From Methanobacteriota archaeon (lineage in GTDB: Archaea; Thermoplasmatota; Poseidoniia; Poseidoniales; Thalassarchaeaceae): DNA of 35,519 nt. The DNA is taken from the NCBI GenBank assembly GCA_014240285.1, contig JAAZXI010000011.1:1-35519 (forward strand). The letters are read 5' to 3'. The translations under genes were made by a program, and so were the position numbers. Below are positions 5,104 through 33,249 of the stretch, piece after piece; within the stretch, counting starts at the first letter, position 1, and each line of letters starts with the position of its first letter. Below the pieces are notes generated by a model. It did no database searches, was not told where the DNA came from, and was given only the letters and a program-made list of their open reading frames with translations.

Positions 5104-8100
5104 TTGGTTCATATCCTGAGGGTCGAGGCACGTTCCGTGCCTCGCGTGAGAGCGGCCCTTGCTGTTTTGACCATCCTACTGCTCAGCGGTCCCGCCGCGA
5201 TGGCAGTCGGAGAGGGCGACGAGACGACGAGCTGCACGGTACTGGTCGATTGGGACGCCGAGAGTCATTGGGACGGCGGATGGAACATGACCTACGACGT
5301 CCTGCACCGCTACCTCGTAGTCTTCGAACCGCCGTTCACCAACGGCAGCGCGCCGAGTGCCCTCAGCGTCGAGGTCCATCATCACAGGGACGGCGAGCAG
5401 ATAGCTGACACATCCAACACCTCGGTGCTGAGCGCTGGCGGCGAGGTCGACATCATTCTCTCTACCGAGCCCGAGTTCGGTGACTCGATATCGATCTCTG
5501 TCATCACCGGTGAGGCGTCCTGCTCGAGAAGCCTCGCCATCACTAACTGGAACCAGCCCATGGCCAATCACGAGATAACCCGAGAGACGACTTGGTCAAT
5601 GGAGGGTGCTGAGCAGAGTAATGGAATTGATTTCGAGGGCCGAGGTTGGCAGAAGAGGACAGGGAACATCCTTGAGTCTAACGAACTGGGCAACGGGACC
5701 CTGACTCTGGATTCGATGAACGGCACCGAGGGCCTCGAACTAGAACTTAATCTCGACCGAATCTGGCTGAACGAGACCTACGACGGCGTCGAACTGGTCC
5801 GTCAGGACTTCGAGATGAGCGGAAACGGCTCACTCTTCCTCAACACCACTGAGGAGGGTGAGGACGGCGAGAGCAGCGGCTTCTCAGTCGATGTCCAGGT
5901 CAACGACGTTTACGTCCTGCGTTCATGGGACGAGGGCAAACTCACCGAGCGCTTCCTCATTGATGGCACAGGATGGCTATCCTTCGGCGGCGGTGATAAC
6001 AATAGCAGCGGTGGAGGATTCGGTCAACTGTCATCGTTCTACTACGAAACTTGGGACGAGGACGACCGCAGACGCCTACAGCACCTGCAGATCGAGGCCA
6101 ATGCCACTCTGCGCCTCAATGGAGCGGACAGAGATCACTTCTCCTTCGACCTCGACGAATTCAGGATACTCGAGCGCTGGGAAGACGGCACGAGGGAGCA
6201 GCAGCACTTCCTGATTCTCGGAGGAGGGGATTTTGGTTTCGTCATCGAGGACGAGTTCCTCGAGGTCGAGGTCAATGGTACCATTCCGGTCATTCACTTT
6301 GAGGCCCAGGGCGGCGAGACCGTAGCGGAGACGATCCGAGTCGACGGCACCTACGATGGTGATGCTGAGGGAAGCTTCGGCTTCATCAGGAGGATAGTCG
6401 ACTCCGGCTCACAGGAGAATGCTACTGGGATGATGTTTGAGGCCGACAAAATCGAGAACGAGTTCTGGTTCAATGTATCTGCCACACCTATCGGCCCAAT
6501 CACCGAGGAGTGGGAGGCCGAACACAACCTGACCTACGAGTTCATTGTCCCGCAGACCGACTGGGACAACCGCACCATCCGCTACCAGTATGTCGAGGAC
6601 AACGGCAGTGTGACCAACGAGTACCCGGAGGTCTCCCCCATCATTATTCAGGCCGAGGCCCCAGAGGCTGGGGTCATGTTCGAGAACCACATATCCAGAG
6701 AGACCGGCGCCGCTCCCGAGATTGTCGTTGCCGGGGACCGCTTCTCATTGACCGGCAACGACGCGATGATACTGAGCATCGAGGTGACAGCCATCGTTGA
6801 GGACGAGATGGACGGTCACACAGTCGAGGTCGCCGAGTGGCTCGGGGACTACGGCGAGAATAGCCACGCCTCAGGCAGCATCGTCAACGAGGGCCCCCTC
6901 GCAGGCCTGCTCAACGAGGTCCACCGGTGGGTGGAGATCGAAATTGGTGAGAACGGCTCGGGTGATAGCATCGCCTTCGTCGAGCACCAGCTCGTTGACA
7001 GGGTACTGTCACCTTCAGTGGTATCTGAGGAAGAGAACACCCCTCCTTCGTTGGTCTCAGTCGGCTTCCGAGAGGGCAGGTTGCTGACTGAGGGCGACTC
7101 AGCCCACCTAGAGGTCCTAGTCTACGACTTCGACACAGATGTAACGGAAGTCTCCATCGACCTGTCGGAGTTGGGCCTGGGCGTGGTCGAGCTCTCCGAC
7201 TCAGGCCTGCAGGGCGACCACACCATCCACGATGACATCTGGACCGCGCTAATCACCTACGACGGCCTCGATCACGGAATGATGGATGCATCAGTGGTAA
7301 TCGATGACTTCTGGGTCTCAGTTGAGGAGCAGGCATCAATCGAGATAACCAACGCCGCACCGAGGATGATTTCACTGGTCTTCACGCCCGATACTGCCAA
7401 GCGCGGTGATACAGTTGACGTCAGCGTCACCGCATTGGATGGGCACGGCATCGATTCAGTCGGCATCGACCTGTTGAGCGCAGGCGGCGCACTCAGTGTA
7501 CTCTCAGAGTCTGATGGGATATGGGGGGGGCAGTTCGTGGTGCCGGACGGGATCTCTCCCGGTGAGCGTTCCATACCAGTCAGAATTACGGACGGTGACG
7601 GCGAGACCGTGATGGCAGTTCACACTCATCTGAATGGCTTCCCTGTGGATGCACCGATGCTGACTATCGAGAACGAGGCACCCTCAGTCAGCTCAGTCAA
7701 CGTGCTTAGGTCTGGAGAGGCGGCTGAGACGATTCACGTTCCGTACAGCGGCGATGCTCTTCTTCACACACTTGAAGCGACCATCGACGACCCTGACGGT
7801 ATTTCTTCCGCGCAGGCCAAGATAGGCAGGCTGGCGCCAATCGGCAGCTCTGACGTCTGGTTGCTCATGGTCGACGACGGAACGAATGGAGACAGAGTCG
7901 CAGGCGACGGTGTCTACACTTTGCAGTTTGATGTCAGGACGAGCCTTCCTGAGGGCAACATCTCAATTCAGATTCGAGCTACAGACACTTACCTGTCCAC
8001 TACACCGACCGTTGAACAGGGCCATACCCTCGAACTCGAGAAACTTGGCTCGGGCGGAGGAGGGGGCAGCTGGTTCAGCGATAACTCGACGACCCTCGTC

Positions 8101-8676: not shown

Positions 8677-8750
8677 ATATCCCAGAAGACATGTCAGTTA
8701 TTGAATTACATGAATCTCATAAGACGCCGCGCAGTCGAGTAGGTGTGCAC

Positions 8751-10163
8751 ATGCGCGAGGAGTTGTACATCGGCGGCCAGTGGGTCGAACCTTTCGGCGA
8801 AGGCACGATTGAAGTGATCAATCCCGCCAATGAGGAGTTGATTGGTTCGGTACCGGTCGGTTCCGCCGCCGATGTAGATGCCGCGGTGGCCGCAGCGCAC
8901 TCTGCTTTCCCCTCCTGGTCACAGACCCCAGTAGGAGAGCGAGCGGAGTTCCTGAACAGACTGTCCGCGGCCATAAAGGAGCAGACTGAGAAACTGTCTC
9001 AATTGATTACGGCCGAGGTCGGCACCCCCATCAATTACTGCAGGATGGCTATGGTGGGGACTCCGAAGGTGGTCTCACGCTCGTACGCGAAGATTCTCGA
9101 TGGCTTCGAGTGGGAGAAGGAGATTCGCAACTCACTCGTGGTCAAGGAGCCCATCGGCGTGGTAGCGATGATTACGCCCTGGAACTTCCCTCTGCACCAG
9201 ATTATCGGTAAGGTGGCGCCTGCAATCGCTGCCGGATGCACAATGGTGATCAAGCCGTCCAAAGAGGCGCCATTGAACGCCTTTGCACTCGCAGACATAA
9301 TCCACGAAATCGGACTGCCTCCTGGGGTGTTCAATCTGGTATCAGGGCATGGCAGGGAAATCGGAGAGGTCCTGAGCAGCCACCCCGATGTCGACATGGT
9401 CAGCTTCACCGGCTCCACCAGCGCAGGGGTAAGGGTCAGCGAGCTGGCCTCTCCCGGTGTCAAGAGGGTCACACTCGAGCTCGGCGGCAAGAGCGCAAAC
9501 ATCATCCTCGATGACGCCGACATCGCTAGGGCATCCGGCTCAGCAATCTACTCCTGCTTCAACAACTCCGGACAGGAGTGCTCAGCGCTGACTAGACTAC
9601 TCGTCCCCGAGTCCAAACGTGATGAGGTGATTGAGATTATTTCCTCCAAGATGGTCAAGTACACCGTTGGCGACCCACTCGACGAATCGATGCGCTGCGG
9701 CCCTATGGTGTCAAAGCGGCAGCAACAGAGCGTGGCTTCGTACATCGCCAGTGGAATCGAGGAAGGTGCTACTCTGGTTGCTGGGGGTTCGGGCATGCCT
9801 GAGGGACTGGATTCAGGCTGCTTCGTCAGACCCACCGTGTTCGCTGACGTGACTCCTGAGATGACGGTATTCCGAGAGGAAATATTCGGCCCCGTCCTCT
9901 CTATCACCACCTACTCGACCGAGGACGAGGCAGTTGCACTGGCCAACGATTCCGAGTACGGACTCTCCGGAGGTGTATGGTCTGGCGATGATGAACGAGC
10001 CATGCGGGTCGCCCGTCAGATGCGTACCGGGCAGGTGAGCATCAATGGAGGTGCGTTCAACGTCTCAGCGCCATTTGGCGGTTACAAGCTCTCTGGGAAC
10101 GGACGCGAGCTTGGAGTCCACGGACTCGAAGAGTACCTCGAGATCAAGGCAATCCAACGCTGA
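8751..10163 (+). CDS. NAD(P)-dependent aldehyde dehydrogenase
   Basis: A 470-residue class ALDH protein. It shows the fold and cofactor motifs: ITPWNFPLHQI (catalytic Asn), IKPSKEAPLNAF, the Rossmann SFTGSTSAGV, the general-base Glu in LELGGKSANII and the nucleophilic Cys in NNSGQECSALTRL. EEIFGPVLSI and the C-terminal SGNGRELG signature are also present. Such enzymes oxidise aldehydes to acids (or CoA semialdehydes to acids); the substrate cannot be read. I chose the ATG at 8751 (MREELYIGGQW) rather than 8691: it has AGGTG a few bases upstream, and the additional 20 residues are unlike the family and would overlap the divergent sixA promoter region. The kinase gene starts 8 nt downstream. 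Confidence 0.93.
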   Translation: MREELYIGGQWVEPFGEGTIEVINPANEELIGSVPVGSAADVDAAVAAAHSAFPSWSQTPVGERAEFLNRLSAAIKEQTEKLSQLITAEVGTPINYCRMAMVGTPKVVSRSYAKILDGFEWEKEIRNSLVVKEPIGVVAMITPWNFPLHQIIGKVAPAIAAGCTMVIKPSKEAPLNAFALADIIHEIGLPPGVFNLVSGHGREIGEVLSSHPDVDMVSFTGSTSAGVRVSELASPGVKRVTLELGGKSANIILDDADIARASGSAIYSCFNNSGQECSALTRLLVPESKRDEVIEIISSKMVKYTVGDPLDESMRCGPMVSKRQQQSVASYIASGIEEGATLVAGGSGMPEGLDSGCFVRPTVFADVTPEMTVFREEIFGPVLSITTYSTEDEAVALANDSEYGLSGGVWSGDDERAMRVARQMRTGQVSINGGAFNVSAPFGGYKLSGNGRELGVHGLEEYLEIKAIQR

Positions 10164-19962: not shown

Positions 19963-20291
19963 TCAGTAGTTGCCGATGGTCGATAGGCAGCGCTCTATCA
20001 GATTGCCAAGCTCGCCAATCATCGCATCCTCCTCGTTTGTGAATCTGAGTGTCACAGCTCCGGACTTCTTTGATTCAAGACTGGATGGTAGTTGTAGGGG
20101 TAGTAGTACAGCGGCAGCAGGTAGACCCCAACGTGGTGGAGCTGTATCCTGACGCTGGCGAAGGGTCTGCCCGCTTCGGTCTCGATCCTGAGGTCTCCTG
20201 GTTCGTCCACGGTGACCGGCAGTCCTGCAGAGCCGTCTCTTACTATCTCAGCCAACCTAGCCCAGAGGAACAGGTGGTCGGGGTTCTTCAT
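19963..20291 (-). pseudogene. Small protein gene interrupted by a 1-nt deletion (or sequence error)
   Basis: The upstream part, from ATG 20291, reads MKNPDHLFLWARLAEIVRDG and continues to HHVGVYLLPLYYYPYNY. It then meets a premature stop at 20052. In the neighbouring frame the sequence continues in protein-like form, PSSLESKKSGAVTLRFTNEED and ERCLSTIGNY, to a stop at 19963. The 329-nt length becomes a 109-residue frame if one base is added between about 20055 and 20100. I do not recognise the family; it is a small alpha/beta-looking protein. Its ATG overlaps the stop of the hydroxyacyl-CoA dehydrogenase gene (ATGA), so it is the last gene of that operon. It may be a real pseudogene, an assembly error, or (no slippery heptamer seen) a programmed shift. 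Confidence 0.7.
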
Positions 20292-21163
20292 CGCTCGACC
20301 TTCTTGCCGCTGGTCCAGTTGTAGATGCCCTCTCCGGTCTTCTTGCCTAGGTCACCTGCTTCGACCAACCGGTCAAGCAAAGGGTGCGGTCTGTAACTCT
20401 CGTCATCAAAGGCATCCGCGAGGTTGTTGAGAATGTCGCGTCGTACATCCAGGCCAACGAGGTCGCTGAGTTCCAGCGGCCCCATCGGATGCCTGTAACC
20501 CAGACGCATCGCTGTGTCTATGTCGCTTGCCGAGGCAACTCCGTCAGCCAGCATGCGAATCGCCTCGTTGCCGAGGACGACCCCGAGGCGACTTGTCGCG
20601 AAACCCGGGACGTCGCGCACCAAAATGGTCGTTTTTCCCATCGCAGAACCGATTGACTGCGCGGCTGCGATGGTCTCCTCAGAGACAGTGTTGTGGCGAA
20701 CCAGTTCGAGCAGACTCATCAGTGGAACTGGATTGAAGAAGTGCATCCCGATAATCCTATCCGGACAACCCGTAGATTGCGCTATCTCTGAGATTGGTAG
20801 CCCTGAGGTATTGGTCGCGAGCATCGCGTGACTCGGTGCTAGACGCTCCAGCTCGGCGAAGATATCTTGCTTCAACTGCATGCTCTCCGGAACCGCCTCG
20901 ATGACGAGGTCGGCACCTTCGACCGCCTCAGCCAAGTTATTGACAGCTCTCAGGTTTCCCGACCACTTGACCTTCTGGTCGGATGTGGTCTTGCCTCGCT
21001 CGATGCCTTTGTCCCAGAAAGCCTCGATTGCAGCCATCCCCTTGGTCAGGCCCTCTGGGAACGCATCGTACAAACGGGTCTTCCACCCAGTCTGGGCGCA
21101 AACCTGAGCTATCCCTGCGCCCATAGTCCCAGCGCCGACGACGGCGACACTCCGGACATCCAT
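20288..21163 (-). CDS. 3-hydroxyacyl-CoA (3-hydroxybutyryl-CoA) dehydrogenase
   Basis: 291 residues from ATG 21163, with GGGAG about 7 nt before it; the 21181 ATG would overlap the upstream gene and lacks a ribosome site. NAD-binding Rossmann VAVVGAGTMGAGIAQVCAQTG, then DLVIEAVPESMQLKQDIF, NTSGLPIS, GMHFFNPVPLMSLLELV (catalytic His) and the C-terminal helical domain with RLGYRHPMGPLELSDLVGLD. It oxidises L-3-hydroxyacyl-CoA to 3-ketoacyl-CoA with NAD+. In this operon it could act like PaaH after ring opening, or in ordinary beta-oxidation. There is a 4-nt gap to the upstream gene and a 4-bp overlap with the downstream one. Confidence 0.95.
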   Translation of the reverse strand: MDVRSVAVVGAGTMGAGIAQVCAQTGWKTRLYDAFPEGLTKGMAAIEAFWDKGIERGKTTSDQKVKWSGNLRAVNNLAEAVEGADLVIEAVPESMQLKQDIFAELERLAPSHAMLATNTSGLPISEIAQSTGCPDRIIGMHFFNPVPLMSLLELVRHNTVSEETIAAAQSIGSAMGKTTILVRDVPGFATSRLGVVLGNEAIRMLADGVASASDIDTAMRLGYRHPMGPLELSDLVGLDVRRDILNNLADAFDDESYRPHPLLDRLVEAGDLGKKTGEGIYNWTSGKKVER

Positions 21164-21167
21164 CCGA

Positions 21168-21728
21168 TCACTCCCTGCCATAGGCTGCAAGCGCGGCTTG
21201 GAATAGCCTCTGGCGCGGCACATCGTGCTCTATGAAGCAAGTGAATGGAGCGACGTCCTTCAGTAACTCGATGGCGCTGACGTAGGCGCCGTATACGAAT
21301 GGATCTGCTGACTTGGTGGCTGGAATTTCAATTCCCAACTTGACTAGGCCCATTCTTGTATCCTCGTCCCAGATGGCATAGGTGTGGTTGGTGAAGTGGA
21401 GGTATGCGGACAGCCTACGCAGATCCGACCTCGCCTTCTCGGTAAAGCTCTCTAACAGAAGCGTATCTGGATATCTGATAGCGTACAGCGCCAGCATGAC
21501 CTCTCTCTGAGTCTCCTCGCGCCAATCTCGTTTCTCCAGCCCCATCCAAGAGTCAATCATGTCTAGCATCTCGGGGGTGTACGGTCTGCGGACTCTGTAC
21601 AGCAGTTCCTCGTAACCTCCTGCATCCCCCTCCTTGGAGTGGTGATGCTGGTGAAAGTAGTCAGTCAGCATATCGAAGAACGGCCCACATCGCTCTTTGT
21701 CGAACGATGTCAGCGCTATGTGCTGCAT
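21168..21728 (-). CDS. Unrecognised 186-residue protein in the oxygenase operon
   Basis: Starts MQHIALTSFDKERCGPFF; largely alpha-helical by eye, soluble, with a run HQHHHSKEGD near residue 27 and a phrase YLHFTNHTYAIWDEDTRMGLVKLG around 110-133. I do not recognise a family. The last phrase loosely recalls helical domains in which a YPIxDxx segment follows a helix, but that is not enough for a call. It is strictly between the BoxB/PaaA-like oxygenase gene (19-nt gap) and the hydroxyacyl-CoA dehydrogenase gene (4-nt gap), so it likely serves the same pathway, for example as an accessory factor for the oxygenase. That role is inference only. Confidence 0.8.
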   Translation of the reverse strand: MQHIALTSFDKERCGPFFDMLTDYFHQHHHSKEGDAGGYEELLYRVRRPYTPEMLDMIDSWMGLEKRDWREETQREVMLALYAIRYPDTLLLESFTEKARSDLRRLSAYLHFTNHTYAIWDEDTRMGLVKLGIEIPATKSADPFVYGAYVSAIELLKDVAPFTCFIEHDVPRQRLFQAALAAYGRE

Positions 21729-21747: not shown

Positions 21748-22890
21748 TCAGTCTCCCTTCCACTCTCGGTACTGTATCCATTCTTGCTTCAGATACTTGT
21801 TGACCAGCCTGTCCTCATCCTCATCCGTTGGCAGGACCGAAGAGAGATACTCCTCCCAAGCGACATCATCGCCCTCAAAATCCTCGCCATGGACAGTGTA
21901 TCGCTTTCCCGCGAATTTGCCTATGCCGCGCTTGAACTTGTCAGAGGGGATGTAGAGTTCTGACTCCCCTTCCTTGCGGACCTTGCTGATTCTACGCATC
22001 TCGTCTCGCAGTTCCTGAAAGTACAGTTCCCGACTGGCTTCGTTCAGATGTTCTCTGACTGCGGGCTCCTGAGCCTCTCGTTCGTCGTATCTACCCTTGA
22101 CCCCATACACATATGCCCATTGGGCACTCGTGGAGTCGTCGGTACCAAACAGGTCCAGTCCAGTACTAACCCACTTGTTGACGTACTTCTGGATGAGGTC
22201 ACAGGGGATGACACCCTGCTTCACTACCCTGCGAAGTCCATTGGCGCCAGTTCCAAGGTGAAATGACTCCTCCTTCAACATCGGCCCCATACTGGCAGCC
22301 AAGGGCTTGAACGACGAGGTGCTTAGCATCTTGAGTTGGTACTTGCCATCACGATCGATGAAGTGGGTGAACATGAAGAAATCGAGCCAGTGGTCGATAG
22401 GCTCGTTGAATGAACCAAGTATACGAGTCCCCTCCTGAGCATTCCTCTCAAGCAGTTTTGAGGCCTCTCTTACGCCCTGTTCGCCGAAGAACGTGCAGAG
22501 CAGGTAAGCCATTTGCCAGCCATGACGCTGCTCCTCACACATGATTCTCAGAGCCGACTTGCGGTCGTACTCGGTCGGCGCAGAGGCCAGCAGATGGTTC
22601 TGCTGCTCAACTGATGCGAACTCTGTGTCGCCCTGAACACTTACCATGTTGATTATGGCGTCTCGAATGGTCTGTTGGGGGATTTGCATTCTACGCTCCC
22701 ACTTTGGTTTACCTTTGAAGTCGCCAAACTCGATTTGACTGCCAGCAGTGTCCCAGTCGAACTTGATGTCAAAACGATAGTCGCCAAGCCATGAGGGGTC
22801 GAAGCCTATTCTGGTCTGCCACTCGCTGAAGTCGTCAATCCAAGCCTCGAAGTTCTGAGTGTAGTCTCCGACAACCTCTGCGTCTGCCAT
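21748..22890 (-). CDS. BoxB/PaaA-like ferritin-fold diiron aryl-CoA oxygenase
   Basis: A 380-residue member of the PaaA/BoxB family (aromatic-ring CoA epoxidases). Diiron ligands are visible as the helix-1 Glu in VQGDTEFASVEQQ, E-x2-H in MCEEQRHGWQM, an acidic helix DHWLDFFMFTHFIDRDG, and a second E-x2-H in LKEESFHLGTG. Phrases such as CEEQRHGWQMAYLL and LKEESFHLG recall benzoyl-CoA epoxidase BoxB. Length lies between PaaA (about 310) and BoxB (about 470). Known relatives epoxidise benzoyl-CoA or phenylacetyl-CoA with O2 and a reductase partner (BoxA, PaaE), neither of which is in the window; the true substrate may be another CoA thioester. TATA-like GATATA about 24-29 nt upstream suggests its own leaderless promoter inside the operon. 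Confidence 0.85.
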   Translation of the reverse strand: MADAEVVGDYTQNFEAWIDDFSEWQTRIGFDPSWLGDYRFDIKFDWDTAGSQIEFGDFKGKPKWERRMQIPQQTIRDAIINMVSVQGDTEFASVEQQNHLLASAPTEYDRKSALRIMCEEQRHGWQMAYLLCTFFGEQGVREASKLLERNAQEGTRILGSFNEPIDHWLDFFMFTHFIDRDGKYQLKMLSTSSFKPLAASMGPMLKEESFHLGTGANGLRRVVKQGVIPCDLIQKYVNKWVSTGLDLFGTDDSTSAQWAYVYGVKGRYDEREAQEPAVREHLNEASRELYFQELRDEMRRISKVRKEGESELYIPSDKFKRGIGKFAGKRYTVHGEDFEGDDVAWEEYLSSVLPTDEDEDRLVNKYLKQEWIQYREWKGD

Positions 22891-22961: not shown

Positions 22962-23843
22962 TCAATTCCCATCGAACTCTGGTACTTCCCTCTTGACGTA
23001 GGCGGCTATGCCTTTCTTGGCATCACCGCTTTGGAAGAGGTCTGACTGCAGCTCCCTTTCGAGAGCGAGATGGTACTCGAGAGGTATCTCCATGCCGCTC
23101 TGGACGCTGCGCTTGATGTTCCCAATTGCCTTGCTGGCAGCATAGGGCAGGGTGAACTGGCCTGCGTAGTCTAGGATGTCCTGGCGAAACTCGTCGAGGC
23201 TGCCGGCCCAGACGTCATGAACCAGATCCATCTCCTTGGCCTCCTCGTACGAGAATTTACGTCCAGTGACCATAATCTCCATCGCCTTTGCTTTACCGAC
23301 CAGACGAGACAGTCTGGCAGTCCCGCCGGTACCTGCGAGGACGCCTAAGGAGACCTCGGGCAGACCGACCTGCCCAGAGTCCTTGCGACCGATTCGGATG
23401 TCGGCTGCCATGGCAATTTCGAGGCCGCCTCCGACGGCGTGACCGTTGAGGGCGGCGATAACGAGCTTGGGGGTCTGCTCAAGCCTGCTCAGGGTCTCGT
23501 TGGCGTGAAGGCAGAAGAAATACTTGAATCCAGGACTGACAGAATCAAGCATACTGATGCTGGCTCCTGCTGAGAAGAACTTCTCACCGTGTCCAGTCAG
23601 CATAATCACAGTCGCATCATCATCGAAGCGAGCCTTCAGAACCGCCTCATCGATGTCGCGCATCATCGCGTGAGTGTATGTATTGACCGGAGTTTTCCCC
23701 TCAGTCAACGGGTCACCGGCTGAATCGGAGCACAGCTCGATGACGGCTATTCCGTTGTCCGTTACTCCGTAGTTCACAAGATTGTTTGTCATCGGCTCCA
23801 TTTCGGGCCAAGAGGTCATGCCCGCGCCACTGAGGGCCGCCAT
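22962..23843 (-). CDS. Enoyl-CoA hydratase/isomerase (crotonase family) of the oxygenase operon
   Basis: About 276-293 residues. Crotonase motifs: EKFFSAGASISMLD (first oxyanion element), NGHAVGGGLEIAMAADIRIG (second), and VGLPEVSLGVLAGTGGTARLSRLVGKAKAMEIMVTG with the catalytic Glu. The N-terminal strand with PVNTYTHAMMRDIDEAV is normal for the family. Next to a BoxB/PaaA-like oxygenase this may be the isomerase/hydratase step (as PaaG/PaaF do after epoxidation), but the sequence alone does not separate these roles. Start uncertain: ATG 23843, 23819 or 23792. The last is preceded by GGAG (3 nt) and gives MTNNLVNYG, nearest to family N-termini. Confidence 0.92.
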   Translation of the reverse strand: MAALSGAGMTSWPEMEPMTNNLVNYGVTDNGIAVIELCSDSAGDPLTEGKTPVNTYTHAMMRDIDEAVLKARFDDDATVIMLTGHGEKFFSAGASISMLDSVSPGFKYFFCLHANETLSRLEQTPKLVIAALNGHAVGGGLEIAMAADIRIGRKDSGQVGLPEVSLGVLAGTGGTARLSRLVGKAKAMEIMVTGRKFSYEEAKEMDLVHDVWAGSLDEFRQDILDYAGQFTLPYAASKAIGNIKRSVQSGMEIPLEYHLALERELQSDLFQSGDAKKGIAAYVKREVPEFDGN

Positions 23844-23872
23844 ATCAATCAAACGGAGCAGGATGGACGCCT

Positions 23873-25099
23873 TTAGGCGTCACTCTTGTCGAAGGAGGTC
23901 TTGCCTCCACCCCTGCGAACGAGGTCCCACTGTTCTGCAATCTTTTCGCCTCTGACGCTCGGCTCCCAACTGTCCCTAGAAAGAGCCTTCCTGAATGGCA
24001 TGCGACTAACCATTCTACCGTCTGCGAGTTGTTTGCGCCTGAGCATGCCGAGCCTGACCATTGGCCACAGCATTCTCCGAATTAGTCCCGGCTTGTACAT
24101 CCAGCGCATGAACGCGAGACCGTCTCCCTTCCTGCGCTGATCTCGCATCCAGTGATTGGCAACCATCTTGAATCCGCGATTACCGACTCTGTTCATCATG
24201 AAGCGGTTGATGGCACTGGCCCTGACTAGGGGAACGAGGCGTTTACGCACTTCACTCTCATAGTCGCACTCACCAAGAACTGCTCTGGCTGCCAGTACAC
24301 CACTGGTGACCGCGTATCTCATGCCGAAGCCCCACATGAAGTCCTGTAGACCACCCGCCTCGCCCACATAGTAGCGTCCCTCGTGGACGTATTTGTCCGG
24401 CAGCGAGAAGTCGCCTTTGCCACCAACCCTCTTGATAGGTTTGCGATTTAGGTCGTAGTGCTGCTCGTACCATGCTATGGTCTCATTGAGGTAGCGCGAA
24501 GTCTTCTTCTGCTGCCTCCACAGACAGGTACAGATCAGACCTATGCCGTCGATTATGATGAGGTAGGAATAGGCTCCAGGTGCCAACTTGTCATTCAGCT
24601 GGAAGGTGACATGATTGGGGTGACTGGTGTGAAATATCTCCCCGAAAGCCACCGCGCTGGATTCCTTCGGACCGGCAGCTACGATTTGGCAGTCCTCGGG
24701 TTCCCTGCGGGTATCGTAGTGGATTTCTGCGCCCGCATTTAGCGCCATCTGCTTGAAGCCCTGGTCGATGCAGTGCTCGGCTGTCCCACGCTCTACTACT
24801 CGAAAAGCAACTCCTGAGGTTCTCGGTTGGGTTATCTCGTCGTCTGGGTGGACTAGATCGATTACATCGAAAGCGTCGGATTTGAACTCATCTGGATTGA
24901 AGCCCCACTCACGCATCTCATCGAAGAAGTCAGAGCCACTGGTCCAATTCTCTATGCCTTGGAAATCACCATCGAAGCGAGCCCCACTATCTGAGCGGAT
25001 TTCGTGGACATGAACCTCCCGGCCCGCGTTCGCCAGATAGGCGGCCGCGGCGAGACCCGAGAGGCCTGCTCCGAGGATGTGGACTGGCTCGTTACTCAC
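23873..25099 (-). CDS. FAD-dependent oxidoreductase of the geranylgeranyl-reductase family
   Basis: 408 residues. FAD-binding dinucleotide fold VHILGAGLSGLAAAAYLANAGREVHVHEI (5-33), a central substrate-binding beta region (SYLIIIDGIGLICTCLW) and the second FAD motif YYVGEAGGLQDFMWGFGMRYAVTSGVLAA. The C-terminal part is basic and helical (RRMLWPMVRLGMLRRKQL). The layout fits archaeal geranylgeranyl reductase-type flavoproteins that saturate isoprenoid chains of membrane lipids, but the family also includes halogenases and hydroxylases. As first gene of the minus-strand operon with the diiron oxygenase it could instead act on the same substrate. Divergent from moaE across an 80-nt region with a 10-bp inverted repeat. 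Confidence 0.82.
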   Translation of the reverse strand: MSNEPVHILGAGLSGLAAAAYLANAGREVHVHEIRSDSGARFDGDFQGIENWTSGSDFFDEMREWGFNPDEFKSDAFDVIDLVHPDDEITQPRTSGVAFRVVERGTAEHCIDQGFKQMALNAGAEIHYDTRREPEDCQIVAAGPKESSAVAFGEIFHTSHPNHVTFQLNDKLAPGAYSYLIIIDGIGLICTCLWRQQKKTSRYLNETIAWYEQHYDLNRKPIKRVGGKGDFSLPDKYVHEGRYYVGEAGGLQDFMWGFGMRYAVTSGVLAARAVLGECDYESEVRKRLVPLVRASAINRFMMNRVGNRGFKMVANHWMRDQRRKGDGLAFMRWMYKPGLIRRMLWPMVRLGMLRRKQLADGRMVSRMPFRKALSRDSWEPSVRGEKIAEQWDLVRRGGGKTSFDKSDA

Positions 25100-25602: not shown

Positions 25603-26949
25603 TTACATAGTGTCCATTGCACCACTGATGCTGGCCACTGCCTCAGGTACGTTCGATGCTATCCCCTCGACCATCATCCAGCCGTGGCCCTTGACCCCGT
25701 CGCCAACGAGTCTAATTCCTTCGACACCGATGTCCGAGGGTAGTTCGGCACCCTGTGGGGCGCGATTGCAAGGCCAGTTCTTGTGATAGGTGTGGACACA
25801 CAACTCCTCGCCATGGTCAGCGAGCCAAGGGATGGCATCGTAGAGATCCTCACGCCCCTTCACTATCTCCGATTTGACGCTCGGGTCCGGCACGTACTGG
25901 TGTGTGATCATCATGTGCTTTCCCTCAGGTGCGAGACTCGAATCGGAGAAGGTTGGAATAACGTACCCACCGACTCTTTCCAAACCCGGCAGCATAGTTA
26001 CCCCGCTGCCACGGTGGGGAATATCATCATCCAGCGCGAACACGAAGCCGATGCCTCCGACTGCTTGAGTGTCACGGACCTGCTCTCTGATTCCCGTAGC
26101 CACCTCAAAGTCGTCCGAGAGCGCCTTGAGCAGGTTAGGGTGTCCACCATTGTGAATGATCGCATCGGCACCAACCCAAACCCCCTCATCCCGACCGCGC
26201 CGCCTGATACCGATGCAGAAGCGGTTTCCCTTGGTCGACTCCTCTGCATCGCCAGGCAGTATCTCGGTGATTTCGTGGGACAGTTTGACGCGAGCCCCGT
26301 TCTCCCGCAAGTCGCTTCGTAGCCCGTCGATGACCCCCTTGCATCCTCCCTTGGGGACATGAGGGCGATCGAGCCAGAACGAGTTCTGAAGCATCCTCAC
26401 TACGGTCGAAGCAGGCATCTGCTCGAACCTAAGGCTGATAGCGAAGTTGGCGAAAGCATCGACAAAGTCAATGAAGTCATTGGAGAAGTACCTCGACATC
26501 CAGGTCCTGCCGTCCTCAGTCTCGTTGCCCCATGGCCGTTTGGCGGTCTTCATCAACAGCCGCGGCAGGTTCAGAGTGTCCTTGAGCGAGAACCACGGTA
26601 AGACCCCGTAGACCGAGTTGGCCCGTTGCAGCTTACCATCCTTGATCCGGCAGGCGAACTTGGTGGTTGGCAAGAAGTCGACCCCATGACGCCCCAAATC
26701 GAGCCCACCGTTATTCCTATTCCCGAGAATCAGTTTGGCGAAGGGACCCTTCTTGCCGTGTGGAATCATGTGGACTGCGCCGGTTGGAATTTGAAAACCA
26801 TCGTGGTCGTGCTGGGTGAACCTGCCGCCGGCGAAAGACATCCTTTCGTAGACTGAGACATCGTACTTCTGTGTCTGTGCGAGACTTGCGGCTGATGCCA
26901 GCCCCCCTACTCCGGCGCCGATAACCACTGCCTTTGCTCGCTCGCTCAT
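25603..26949 (-). CDS. CrtI/phytoene-desaturase-like FAD oxidoreductase
   Basis: 448 residues. The N-terminal FAD motif KAVVIGAGVGGLASAASLAQ, YDVSVYERMSFAGGRFTQHDHDGFQIPTGAVHMI is characteristic of the carotenoid desaturase / NAD(P)-binding amino-oxidase-like superfamily. A central helical substrate region, the phrase VPKGGCKGVIDGLRSDLRENGARVKLSHEI, and a C-terminal FAD clamp GIRLVGDGVKGHGWMMVEGIASNVPEAV follow. It may desaturate, saturate or isomerise an isoprenoid. The gene lies 9 nt behind a two-cluster ferredoxin gene with GAGGTGG as ribosome site, so the ferredoxin is probably its electron donor or acceptor. No phytoene synthase is in the window; a true carotenoid role is unproven. Confidence 0.85.
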   Translation of the reverse strand: MSERAKAVVIGAGVGGLASAASLAQTQKYDVSVYERMSFAGGRFTQHDHDGFQIPTGAVHMIPHGKKGPFAKLILGNRNNGGLDLGRHGVDFLPTTKFACRIKDGKLQRANSVYGVLPWFSLKDTLNLPRLLMKTAKRPWGNETEDGRTWMSRYFSNDFIDFVDAFANFAISLRFEQMPASTVVRMLQNSFWLDRPHVPKGGCKGVIDGLRSDLRENGARVKLSHEITEILPGDAEESTKGNRFCIGIRRRGRDEGVWVGADAIIHNGGHPNLLKALSDDFEVATGIREQVRDTQAVGGIGFVFALDDDIPHRGSGVTMLPGLERVGGYVIPTFSDSSLAPEGKHMMITHQYVPDPSVKSEIVKGREDLYDAIPWLADHGEELCVHTYHKNWPCNRAPQGAELPSDIGVEGIRLVGDGVKGHGWMMVEGIASNVPEAVASISGAMDTM

Positions 26950-26958
26950 CCTGCCACC

Positions 26959-27219
26959 TCAGGAGTACACTAGGGCTCCTGTTGGACACCAAAGGAGACA
27001 CCTCAGGCAGTCAGTGCAATTATCCTCGATGACCTCGCAAAGTCCCTCGACGATTAGCGCATCGTCCTTACAGGCCATGAGGCAGTAAGAACAGCCGACA
27101 CAGAGTTCGTCGATTACCTGCAGTTTCAGGCCGTCAGTGATAGGCCTGTCATGGGCGATACCCGATTCCAGTTCGGGGACAGCGCCCGGAGTCGCCTTGT
27201 TTCGAAACGCCTCGGCCAC
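26959..27219 (-). CDS. 2[4Fe-4S] ferredoxin
   Basis: 86 residues. Two classical cluster motifs: CVGCSYCLMACKDDAL and CTDCLRCLLWCPTGAL, each CxxCxxCxxxC (the second continues CP). A 38-residue N-terminal extension (KATPGAVPELESGIAHDRP) precedes the clusters. It carries low-potential electrons in the cytosol. The CrtI-like flavoprotein gene follows by 9 nt, suggesting a redox pair. It could also serve the GGR-family reductase or the diiron oxygenase nearby. GTG start at 27219, since no in-frame ATG exists upstream. Divergent from moaC. Confidence 0.92.
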   Translation of the reverse strand: MAEAFRNKATPGAVPELESGIAHDRPITDGLKLQVIDELCVGCSYCLMACKDDALIVEGLCEVIEDNCTDCLRCLLWCPTGALVYS

Positions 27220-30627: not shown

Positions 30628-33249
30628 GTGGTGTCAAATGAATCCCCTGAGCCACTGAATCCCGATTATTCGAACAGTGCTTGGAAAATTAGGAGCAAGC
30701 ATCGCAGGAGACTCCTTGATCGGCTAACTGAGGGTGGTGCCACCGTCAGTGTGTTGGCTAGGGATGTCGAACTCAGGGTTCCGCATGCCTCAGCAGAGAT
30801 AAAACGACTGAGAAACGATGGACTGATCTCCAGTGACTTATCTGCTGGGAGCCGTGGAGCTAGGATCCATCTGACCGAATTGGGTTGGGAGTCAGTGAGG
30901 GCTGACGAGTGGGCGAGGGCATCTGAGGCCTCTCCCCTGCCCGAAGACTCCAGCTTGTGCTGCCTGCTTTCACGCGATGGCCCAAACCTCCTGCTTGGAG
31001 TAATGGAGCCTTGCGACTCCCCCCTGCTACTGATTCCTGATCGCCCCCCCGTTGCGATTCCGGGCAATCCCGGGTCCACCGGAAGCGATGGGGTTCCTTG
31101 GAGTTGGGCGGTACTCAGGGAGAGAGATCCCCGGTGGTTCGACCTCTCGTCGATGGAACCCAAACCAAGTCCTCAGCCCCCCTCCGATCCGGAGAACATA
31201 GCGGCTTACTCCGGACAGCGCACTGTCGTCGGGATAATCCGCGCCCGACTACTCGACTCCGAGCGACCGATAGCAATAGCACCGGGTCAGTGGTTTGGGT
31301 CTCCGGGCTTCCGACCCGCTCCCCCGTTACCTGAGAGCGACTATCATAGGGGGCAGTGGGTACTCGGTGCGTGCCACGAGATGTCACCTGAGATCAGACC
31401 AAAGGAGCCGGTGGTGGCTGTGCTGGAAGACAGGCTTCCTCGCTCCATGCTGCTCAGAACCGCGAGAAGCAACTCGTTAATCATCGCGGATCTTGGTGGG
31501 CTGGATGCCGATGGCGATTCGTACCCACTGGCAGCCCTCGATTCTTGGATCGAGAGGGCTCACCCACGTTTGAGCGATACAGAGAGGAGACGCAGACTAG
31601 GGGCCCTAAAGGACAGGGTCAGCAAGGCGAGAAAGGTCAGGACTGAGGATTCCACTTGGCGTCGATTCAGACAGGACTGGGGCGAATCGGTGTTCACCGA
31701 GGAAGGTGATTCAATCAGGATCCTCGACCTGAGAGGTCTGGGTGCCACGGCGGCCGAGGCATTAGTGAGATGGGCAATCAATGACGATGGTAAACGCCCC
31801 CTAACTGTTGAAGTTGGGGCCGATATGCCCGATGATTTGGTCTCATCGATTGCTTCACACTCCAACCTCAGATTGGCACTCCTAGATGGCGAGATCGCCG
31901 CCTTCGCTGGCTTTGACCGGCTGGACGCCGACCCTCTGAGGCCGCTGCCTTGGTTACGTCTGACAACTAGGGGGGGGAGGATACTGCCTATGCGACTGGT
32001 GGACTCCGCACAGGCCCCTTCGTTTTCAGGCTCCGAGGTAACCGTCGGACCTGAGTGGGAGTCCTTAGGCGTAAATATCGAGTTGTTTGAGGAGATTGAC
32101 GAGGGCCACCTATCAGTCATCAATTCAGCAGTAGTCCAGTACCCCGCAGGCAATGAGGAGTGGGCCAATCAGATGGAAGCCAGATACCCTATTGCGGCTT
32201 GGATAGCATCTCCCGCTGAGGCAAGATGGCCACGCTGGCAGAGACTCAGGAATCGACTCAGTCCGGAGTGGCTAGTACTCATGAATCTGGACGACCTCCC
32301 GCTCGAGAGACTCTCAGAGGTCGCCGACGAGGCACCCGACCTAGTCTTGAAAGAATTCTCCAAGAAGATCACCAGCAGACTCAGGCAGGACCCCGACGCG
32401 GCACTGAGGACGAGGCCAGCGGAGGATCCGAAGCAAGCCACCCGCGGAGCCTCTTGGGTGGCGGCTCAACTGCTGTCGAACGCTCCTTGGTTGCCGGAGC
32501 ACATGCACTCTGATTTGCTCCGTTGGGCTCTAGAGGCATGGCTCTCCGAGCCCCCGAGTGATTCAATGCCCGCTCTCCAGGGAGTTGCGTGGCTTTACTC
32601 CCCGGACCGCAGCGACGAAACCAGCTTCAGGCCGATTATAGAGGGAATTCGGAGCAAGGGCAGGGGGTCTCCATCTGGTCATGACCTGCACACTTGGGCC
32701 AGCCTAGCAGACATGATGCTGGACGATGCGGAGACAAGTCTCGATGATTTGGAGAAAATACTGGAACTGCCTCCCGGCTGGTGGGCACCAGTCTCAGTCA
32801 AGATTCTCTCTGAGCTGCTCGAGGATGACGATTCTACAGATTGGCTCATCGCTAATTCTGCCTCTTGGTGCGCGGCGGTGCTGCGCCCGATAGGCGATTA
32901 CTGCCAGGCCCCCGGGCTGCGTTCATACGAGCATCCTGGATGCGACTCCGAGTTGCGCTCTCGCCTCTTACGTAGGCTGAGGGGCAGGCGTGAGCGTCTG
33001 GGCCTGCCCGATAGCGCTGAACCACTACTTGATCTACTCGACGCCCTAGATGCAGTGAATGATGACAGATCCCCATCGCCAGGAAGGACACATCCGCTAT
33101 CGGGGTGGCTTGCCCAGCCGCTTGAGAAATGGCCGGAATTCTCTTCGGCCGAGGCTATGGACGGTGATTCTAACATCGCCGAGAGACTTCTCTTGAGGAG
33201 CTCCGGGTATCATTCGGAAATCATTGCATCGACGTCGATTTCGGACTGA
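30628..33249 (+). CDS. 873-residue protein with N-terminal winged-helix domain, function unknown
   Basis: N-terminal residues about 15-85 form a MarR/ArsR-like winged helix: KHRRRLLDRLTEGGATVSVLARDVELRVPHASAEIKRLRNDGLISSDLSAGSRGARIHLTELG (recognition helix and wing). The remaining 780 residues are soluble, rich in Trp, Pro and Asp/Glu, with no transmembrane segment and no catalytic motif I can recognise. A strand-rich middle (SLIIADLGGLDADGDSYP, IRILDLRGLGATAAEALVRWAI) precedes a long helical C-terminal half with repeated W-containing phrases (WLPEHMHSDLLRWALEAWL). Start GTG 30628 (or GTG 30631) behind GAGAGGTGG. It may be a large regulator or the HTH-tethered effector of a small system with the two divergent winged-helix genes. 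Not recognised beyond the HTH. Confidence 0.85.
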   Translation: MVSNESPEPLNPDYSNSAWKIRSKHRRRLLDRLTEGGATVSVLARDVELRVPHASAEIKRLRNDGLISSDLSAGSRGARIHLTELGWESVRADEWARASEASPLPEDSSLCCLLSRDGPNLLLGVMEPCDSPLLLIPDRPPVAIPGNPGSTGSDGVPWSWAVLRERDPRWFDLSSMEPKPSPQPPSDPENIAAYSGQRTVVGIIRARLLDSERPIAIAPGQWFGSPGFRPAPPLPESDYHRGQWVLGACHEMSPEIRPKEPVVAVLEDRLPRSMLLRTARSNSLIIADLGGLDADGDSYPLAALDSWIERAHPRLSDTERRRRLGALKDRVSKARKVRTEDSTWRRFRQDWGESVFTEEGDSIRILDLRGLGATAAEALVRWAINDDGKRPLTVEVGADMPDDLVSSIASHSNLRLALLDGEIAAFAGFDRLDADPLRPLPWLRLTTRGGRILPMRLVDSAQAPSFSGSEVTVGPEWESLGVNIELFEEIDEGHLSVINSAVVQYPAGNEEWANQMEARYPIAAWIASPAEARWPRWQRLRNRLSPEWLVLMNLDDLPLERLSEVADEAPDLVLKEFSKKITSRLRQDPDAALRTRPAEDPKQATRGASWVAAQLLSNAPWLPEHMHSDLLRWALEAWLSEPPSDSMPALQGVAWLYSPDRSDETSFRPIIEGIRSKGRGSPSGHDLHTWASLADMMLDDAETSLDDLEKILELPPGWWAPVSVKILSELLEDDDSTDWLIANSASWCAAVLRPIGDYCQAPGLRSYEHPGCDSELRSRLLRRLRGRRERLGLPDSAEPLLDLLDALDAVNDDRSPSPGRTHPLSGWLAQPLEKWPEFSSAEAMDGDSNIAERLLLRSSGYHSEIIASTSISD

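What the first reader, a model, noticed from the sequence alone, without database searches (positions are those of the whole stretch)
21168..21728. Unknown 186-residue protein locked between oxygenase and dehydrogenase genes
No recognisable family, 19 and 4 nt from its neighbours, so translation is probably coupled. It could be a new oxygenase accessory subunit or ring-opening factor that replaces missing Box/Paa components.
Basis: inference. Interest (0 to 1): 0.55.

Follow-up and report, generated by a model that had tools for sequence, protein, structure and literature searches.

The report
New partner protein of archaeal BoxB oxygenase
In the archaea that are abundant in surface seawater, a small protein belonging to no catalogued family is always encoded beside a BoxB-like enzyme that uses oxygen to attack ring compounds, so it is probably a dedicated helper of that enzyme, something the bacterial version does not have.

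Summary
The 186-residue gene ('U186') is real: minus strand, under strong purifying selection, 19 and 4 nt from its neighbours, matching no Pfam, NCBIfam or PDB family even as a profile. The genome is a Marine Group II archaeon (Ca. Thalassarchaeum relative). U186 is core to the order (34/34 near-complete genomes) and occurs in a few other Thermoplasmatota. It tracks a long-form (~380 aa) BoxB-like di-iron oxygenase: of 390 genomes, 121 have both, 3 show the oxygenase alone (all cut by contig ends), none U186 alone. The pair stays adjacent while the crotonase and dehydrogenase neighbours move away in the sister family. Twenty genomes with a short BoxB-like protein lack it. The oxygenase keeps all six BoxB iron ligands and most of the benzoyl pocket; the cluster crotonase is BoxC-like; no BoxA was found. 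Most likely U186 is a dedicated subunit or effector of this oxygenase; bacterial BoxB needs none. A separate enzyme acting on its product remains possible, since several polar residues are invariant. AlphaFold failed (pLDDT 46 and 43).

The parts
21168..21728 (-). U186, the orphan 186-aa protein (the finding)
   Evidence: Open frame, ATG start; family alignment A1 and A5; invariant F17 Y39 P87 H111 L128 Y146 E167 R174 in 85/85 and K157 in 84/85 sequences; purifying selection
21748..22890 (-). Long-form BoxB-like di-iron oxygenase, 380 aa, obligate neighbour of U186
   Evidence: TIGR03225 BoxB 222.8 bits (cut-off 499.1), PF05138 51 bits; closest solved chain 3per BoxB; iron ligands E90 E120 H123 D179 E208 H211
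22962..23852 (-). BoxC-like crotonase (single enoyl-CoA hydratase domain)
   Evidence: PF00378 153 bits; best BoxC (TIGR03222) match of the genome, 71.8 bits against 28.8 or less for the other crotonases listed there
20288..21163 (-). 3-hydroxyacyl-CoA dehydrogenase, downstream gene
   Evidence: PF02737 205 bits, PF00725 113 bits; NF006722 327.7 bits, below cut-off 429; adjacent in Thalassarchaeaceae, separated in most Poseidoniaceae
23873..25099 (-). FAD-binding protein distantly like geranylgeranyl reductases, first gene of the run; not found in the distant loci
   Evidence: PF13450 28.4 bits, TIGR02032 33.4 bits below cut-off; synteny

Best explanation
U186 is a small soluble protein dedicated to the long archaeal BoxB-like oxygenase encoded just upstream. 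It most likely binds that oxygenase as a subunit or effector, affecting its stability, its handling of substrate or product, or the docking of a still unknown electron donor. Together with the BoxC-like crotonase it would make an aerobic acyl-CoA epoxidation module: the oxygenase uses O2 and electrons to epoxidise an aromatic (or unsaturated) acyl-CoA, the crotonase opens or hydrates the product, and beta-oxidation-type enzymes finish. Shown: gene pairing, co-inheritance, selection, ligand conservation, BoxC-likeness. Inferred: physical binding, substrate, reaction, the all-helical fold.
For: Co-occurrence in 390 genomes: 121 both, 3 oxygenase alone (all three cut by contig ends), 0 U186 alone. 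Pairing repeated in several other families of the phylum, U186 directly downstream of a 50-59% identical BoxB-like gene. U186 adjacent to the oxygenase in every Poseidoniales locus (gap 2-63 nt) although crotonase and dehydrogenase move away in the sister family. Twenty genomes with a short BoxB-like protein have no U186. Iron ligands conserved in 88/88 and most pocket residues too (residue roles from PMC5489048). U186 evolves faster than its partner, about 30% against 60% identity between the two families, as accessory proteins often do. Related PaaA enzymes need extra subunits (PMC4498308).
Against: No direct evidence of binding. No sequence similarity to any known oxygenase subunit (hhalign against PaaA, PaaB, PaaC, PaaD at 0.1-2% probability). 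Bacterial BoxB is monomeric and needs no structural subunit (PMC4498308). Several (nearly) invariant polar residues fit an active site at least as well as an interface. In G277 the two genes lie on different contigs. The AlphaFold run of a joined chain gave no usable model.
Confidence: 0.6

Rival explanations
1. U186 is a stand-alone enzyme that acts on the oxygenase's product or substrate (for example an epoxide or oxepin hydrolase or isomerase), with His111, Glu167, Lys157, Arg174 and tyrosines 39 and 146 forming its active or CoA-binding site.
For: In a family whose members fall to 23-26% identity, Y39, H111, Y146, E167 and R174 are identical in 85/85 sequences and K157 in 84/85. BoxB-type reactions need a downstream enzyme that removes the reactive epoxide (PMC4498308).
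Against: The BoxC-like crotonase already fits the downstream role and keeps company with short BoxB-like genes that have no U186. No match to any enzyme family.
Confidence: 0.2
2. U186 is a maturation or iron-loading factor for the oxygenase, needed to assemble the di-iron site but not part of the finished enzyme.
For: Strict one-to-one pairing with a metalloenzyme; paa operons carry an extra gene of unresolved function, paaD, at a similar place (PMC4498308).
Against: No relation to PaaD; no conserved cysteines or metal-binding motif; short BoxB-like enzymes with the same ligands do without it.
Confidence: 0.1
3. U186 replaces the missing BoxA reductase and feeds electrons to the oxygenase.
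For: It stands where boxA stands in a bacterial box operon, boxC-boxB-boxA; BoxA is not found above its cut-off in 26 relatives.
Against: No conserved cysteine, no Fe-S or flavin/NAD(P)H-binding family match; 186 aa is too small for a BoxA-type flavoprotein.
Confidence: 0.03
4. U186 is an unrelated housekeeping gene that merely shares an operon with the oxygenase.
For: Genes such as moaE and moaC are also kept near the cluster in many genomes without an obvious common function.
Against: Presence and absence go together in 390 genomes, and the pair recurs in other gene neighbourhoods of other families of the phylum.
Confidence: 0.05

Closest known systems
Bacterial aerobic benzoyl-CoA (box) pathway, BoxC-BoxB-BoxA
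   Same: Oxygenase related to BoxB with all six iron ligands and most pocket residues; a BoxC-like crotonase encoded next to it
   Different: Oxygenase shorter (380 against about 475 aa) and far below the BoxB equivalog cut-off; crotonase has one domain instead of two; no BoxA found; U186 present, which bacterial box operons lack
Phenylacetyl-CoA epoxidase PaaABCE
   Same: Di-iron oxygenase superfamily, CoA-thioester context, extra small genes next to the catalytic subunit
   Different: U186 shows no relation to PaaA, PaaB, PaaC or PaaD; the oxygenase is much closer to BoxB than to PaaA; PaaK domain absent in 26 genomes
Short (~290 aa) BoxB-like proteins of another Thermoplasmatota family (L182-L184)
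   Same: Same six ligands; related crotonase gene directly upstream (47-49% identical)
   Different: Lack the C-terminal part of the long form (the match stops near residue 280) and have no U186

Membership tests
BoxB (benzoyl-CoA 2,3-epoxidase), for the neighbouring oxygenase | Score above the NCBIfam equivalog cut-off TIGR03225 | tested here: not met
   222.8 bits against 499.1; so 'BoxB-like', not BoxB
BoxB (benzoyl-CoA 2,3-epoxidase), for the neighbouring oxygenase | Six di-iron ligands Glu120, Glu150, His153, Asp211, Glu240, His243 | tested here: met
   All identical in the window protein and in 88/88 Poseidoniales sequences
BoxB (benzoyl-CoA 2,3-epoxidase), for the neighbouring oxygenase | Benzoyl pocket residues Gln116, Thr119, Ser123, Phe193, Phe203, Phe206, Thr210 | tested here: inconclusive
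   The first five kept; Phe206 is F or Y; Thr210 is I or V
BoxB (benzoyl-CoA 2,3-epoxidase), for the neighbouring oxygenase | Partner reductase BoxA | tested here: not met
   No match above cut-off in 26 relatives; only separate FNR-like and ferredoxin-like partial matches
BoxB (benzoyl-CoA 2,3-epoxidase), for the neighbouring oxygenase | Epoxidation of benzoyl-CoA | not testable with these tools
   Needs enzyme assay
Subunits of phenylacetyl-CoA epoxidase (PaaB, PaaC) or PaaD, for U186 | Sequence or profile similarity | tested here: not met
   hhalign probabilities 0.1% (PaaC), 0.1% (PaaB), 2% (PaaD)
Subunits of phenylacetyl-CoA epoxidase (PaaB, PaaC) or PaaD, for U186 | Same fold as PaaC (ferritin-like) or PaaB | tested here: inconclusive
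   Models all-helical but pLDDT 46 and 43; not usable for a fold search
BoxA reductase, for U186 | Fe-S cluster and FAD/NADPH-binding domains | tested here: not met
   No such family match; no conserved cysteine

The most novel reading that the evidence does not exclude
U186 founds a new family of obligate subunits (or coupled enzymes) of a distinct archaeal lineage of aerobic acyl-CoA epoxidases that works without BoxA and belongs to the core metabolism of Marine Group II archaea.
Probability: 0.5. Interest if true: 0.7.

Novelty: new variant of a known kind. Interest (0 to 1): 0.52.

Why it matters
Marine Group II archaea are among the most abundant planktonic archaea of surface seawater and have no cultured members. 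An oxygen-dependent acyl-CoA oxygenase module found in every near-complete genome sampled from the order points to a universal aerobic step in their carbon metabolism; the main genomic survey of the group names fatty acid degradation but no oxygenase (PMC6461757). BoxB is described as a di-iron epoxidase that needs no structural subunit (PMC4498308), so a lineage with an obligate partner would show a second way of building this enzyme. It also makes a direct test possible: express the pair and ask what U186 changes.

Tried and rejected
Family libraries: Pfam, NCBIfam and PDB sequence searches with single proteins and profiles gave only noise (Vitellogenin_N E 0.08; Pax homeodomain E 0.15), rejected. 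Structure: two AlphaFold jobs, U186 alone (60 close rows) and a stop-read-through BoxB-U186 chain from L178, gave pLDDT 46.1 and 43.3, so no Foldseek search was run. hhalign against PaaA-D and against the BoxB neighbour: no relation. Viral contigs: no relatives. Plasmid search with a distant member: no match. The genome-contig scan used patterns specific to the home family, so it says nothing about other phyla. BoxA: the FNR-like partial matches belong to a gene that reads like a sulphite-reductase flavoprotein, about 16-17 kb away in many relatives; not accepted as BoxA. Literature: no paper found on BoxB-like genes in these archaea.

Full report
What is there. The ORF at 21168-21728 is on the minus strand, 186 codons plus stop. 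The window is contig C8 of a 1.33 Mb, 82.5% complete genome. Its nearest relatives in the GTDB collection are Ca. Thalassarchaeum and other Marine Group II (Ca. Poseidoniales) genomes. On the minus strand the gene run is: FAD-binding protein 23873-25099, crotonase 22962-23852, BoxB-like oxygenase 21748-22890, U186 21168-21728, 3-hydroxyacyl-CoA dehydrogenase 20288-21163.

Is it a gene? Yes. Homologues with an open frame were found in 167 of 194 genomes of the order, and in all 34 that are at least 90% complete. None was found in 21 genomes of the third family of the class. dN/dS against close relatives is about 0.04-0.06 where synonymous sites are not saturated, and 0.06-0.13 for Poseidoniaceae pairs.

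Is it an orphan? No Pfam or NCBIfam model matches above noise, for the window protein or for 13 members spanning the family. Profiles find nothing in the PDB sequences. Profile comparison with E. coli PaaA, PaaB, PaaC and PaaD gives probabilities of 0.1-2%.

Distribution and pairing. A profile finds members outside the order in six of the sampled Thermoplasmatota genomes, and inspection adds a seventh, G234. In five of the six, and in G234, the gene sits directly downstream of a 50-59% identical BoxB-like gene; in G277 the two are on different contigs. A parallel search with the oxygenase in the same 390 genomes gives, when the two lists are compared: in the order, 114 genomes with both, 2 with the oxygenase only (G046 and G096, where the contig ends at the oxygenase gene), none with U186 only. 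Outside the order, 8 genomes have the long-form oxygenase: 7 have U186, and in the eighth (G247) the contig ends inside the oxygenase gene. Twenty genomes, nearly all of one family, have a shorter BoxB-like match with no U186. In total: 121 both, 3 truncated, 0 U186 alone. One genome (G215) carries in addition a C-terminal fragment of a second U186-like gene away from any oxygenase, without a complete frame.

Adjacency. In all Poseidoniales loci examined U186 follows the oxygenase on the same strand, 2-63 nt apart. In Poseidoniaceae the crotonase is usually kilobases away, and the dehydrogenase is separated by about 0.9-1.2 kb, in loci read in full by a gene that reads as an EamA-type transporter. 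Of the neighbours, only the oxygenase-U186 pair is constant.

The oxygenase. It scores 222.8 bits with the BoxB equivalog (cut-off 499.1) and only 43.6 with PaaA; the closest solved chain is BoxB 3per. Mapped onto BoxB, with residue roles taken from PMC5489048, all six iron ligands are identical in 88 of 88 Poseidoniales sequences. Gln116, Thr119, Ser123 and Phe203 of the pocket are identical, Phe193 is identical in all readable sequences, Phe206 is F or Y, and Thr210 is I or V. So it is probably an active di-iron oxygenase on a CoA thioester, plausibly with an aromatic acyl group; the substrate is not shown.

The crotonase and the missing parts. With the BoxC profile, the operon crotonase is the best match in all 13 Thalassarchaeaceae genomes searched (53-81 bits), and in the 8 Poseidoniaceae genomes the best match (64-91 bits) lies on the same contig within about 16 kb of U186, in G004 at the crotonase of the cluster; other crotonases reach at most 41 bits. 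The match covers roughly the first 40% of BoxC. In a bacterial box operon the order is boxC-boxB-boxA; here it is BoxC-like, BoxB-like, U186. BoxA is not found above cut-off in 26 genomes, though separate FNR-like and ferredoxin-like partial matches exist. The PaaK C-terminal domain is absent in 26 genomes, and no benzoate-CoA ligase reaches cut-off in 21. The electron donor and the CoA ligase are open questions. No U186-like ORF was found near a bacterial boxB, near haloarchaeal or E. coli paa genes, or near the short archaeal BoxB-like genes.

What U186 does. The evidence shows functional coupling to the oxygenase; it does not show binding. A dedicated subunit or effector is favoured because the pair is inseparable, the small gene evolves faster than its partner, and related di-iron enzymes use extra subunits (PMC4498308). 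The same review states that BoxB itself is monomeric and needs no structural subunit, which is why this would be a variant. Against a merely structural role, F17, Y39, P87, H111, L128, Y146, E167 and R174 are identical in 85 of 85 sequences and K157 in 84, so a catalytic or ligand-binding role is the main rival.

Limits. Both AlphaFold jobs failed to give a usable model, so the fold is unknown; 'helical' is a low-confidence reading. Only close relatives could be handed to the fold tool under its stated rule. Searches beyond Thermoplasmatota were weak. The co-occurrence counts come from comparing two tool lists and include related genomes, so the number of independent events is far smaller than 121; the recurrence of the pair in several separate families of the phylum is the stronger part.

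Noticed in passing
L042:6078-7001 (-), L044:6084-6992 (-), L050:7697-8680 (+): In Poseidoniaceae a gene reading as an EamA-type transporter sits directly after U186, between it and the dehydrogenase; in two of these loci it starts within a few bases of the U186 stop. It may belong to the same module (substrate or product transport).
   Followed up: no
L042:8776-9399 (-), L044:8756-9436 (-), L035:5022-5714 (+): Directly upstream of the oxygenase in Poseidoniaceae and in one Thalassarchaeaceae genus lies a gene that reads as a helix-turn-helix regulator of the bacterio-opsin-activator type, a possible dedicated regulator of the oxygenase-U186 pair.
   Followed up: no
window 26968-27117 (-): A small ferredoxin-like ORF (partial BoxA-profile match) lies next to the FAD gene 25603-26949. 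That FAD gene was not found in the cluster of the other genera examined, where moaE and moaC are only some tens of bases apart, so the pair looks restricted to this genus.
   Followed up: partly
L192:7529-8809 (-), L193:8815-10131 (+), L194:8368-9615 (+): A reductase reading like a sulphite-reductase flavoprotein (FNR part of the BoxA profile) lies about 16-17 kb from U186 in many genomes of both families; a candidate electron donor or just conserved synteny.
   Followed up: partly
L182, L183, L184: Another Thermoplasmatota family has short BoxB-like genes with the same iron ligands next to a related crotonase but without U186, a natural comparison for what U186 adds.
   Followed up: partly
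L097, about 6930-7140 (+), genome G215: C-terminal fragment of a second U186-like gene upstream of an unrelated crotonase, without an oxygenase nearby; looks like a decayed copy.
   Followed up: partly
window 8691-10163 (+): Aldehyde dehydrogenase whose relatives lie within a few kilobases of the cluster in several genera (L034, L035, L037, L038); a possible BoxD-like step.
   Followed up: no
window 30628-33249 (+): Long 873-aa ORF whose start reads like a winged-helix domain, with relatives in other genomes (L193, L194); not examined.
   Followed up: no
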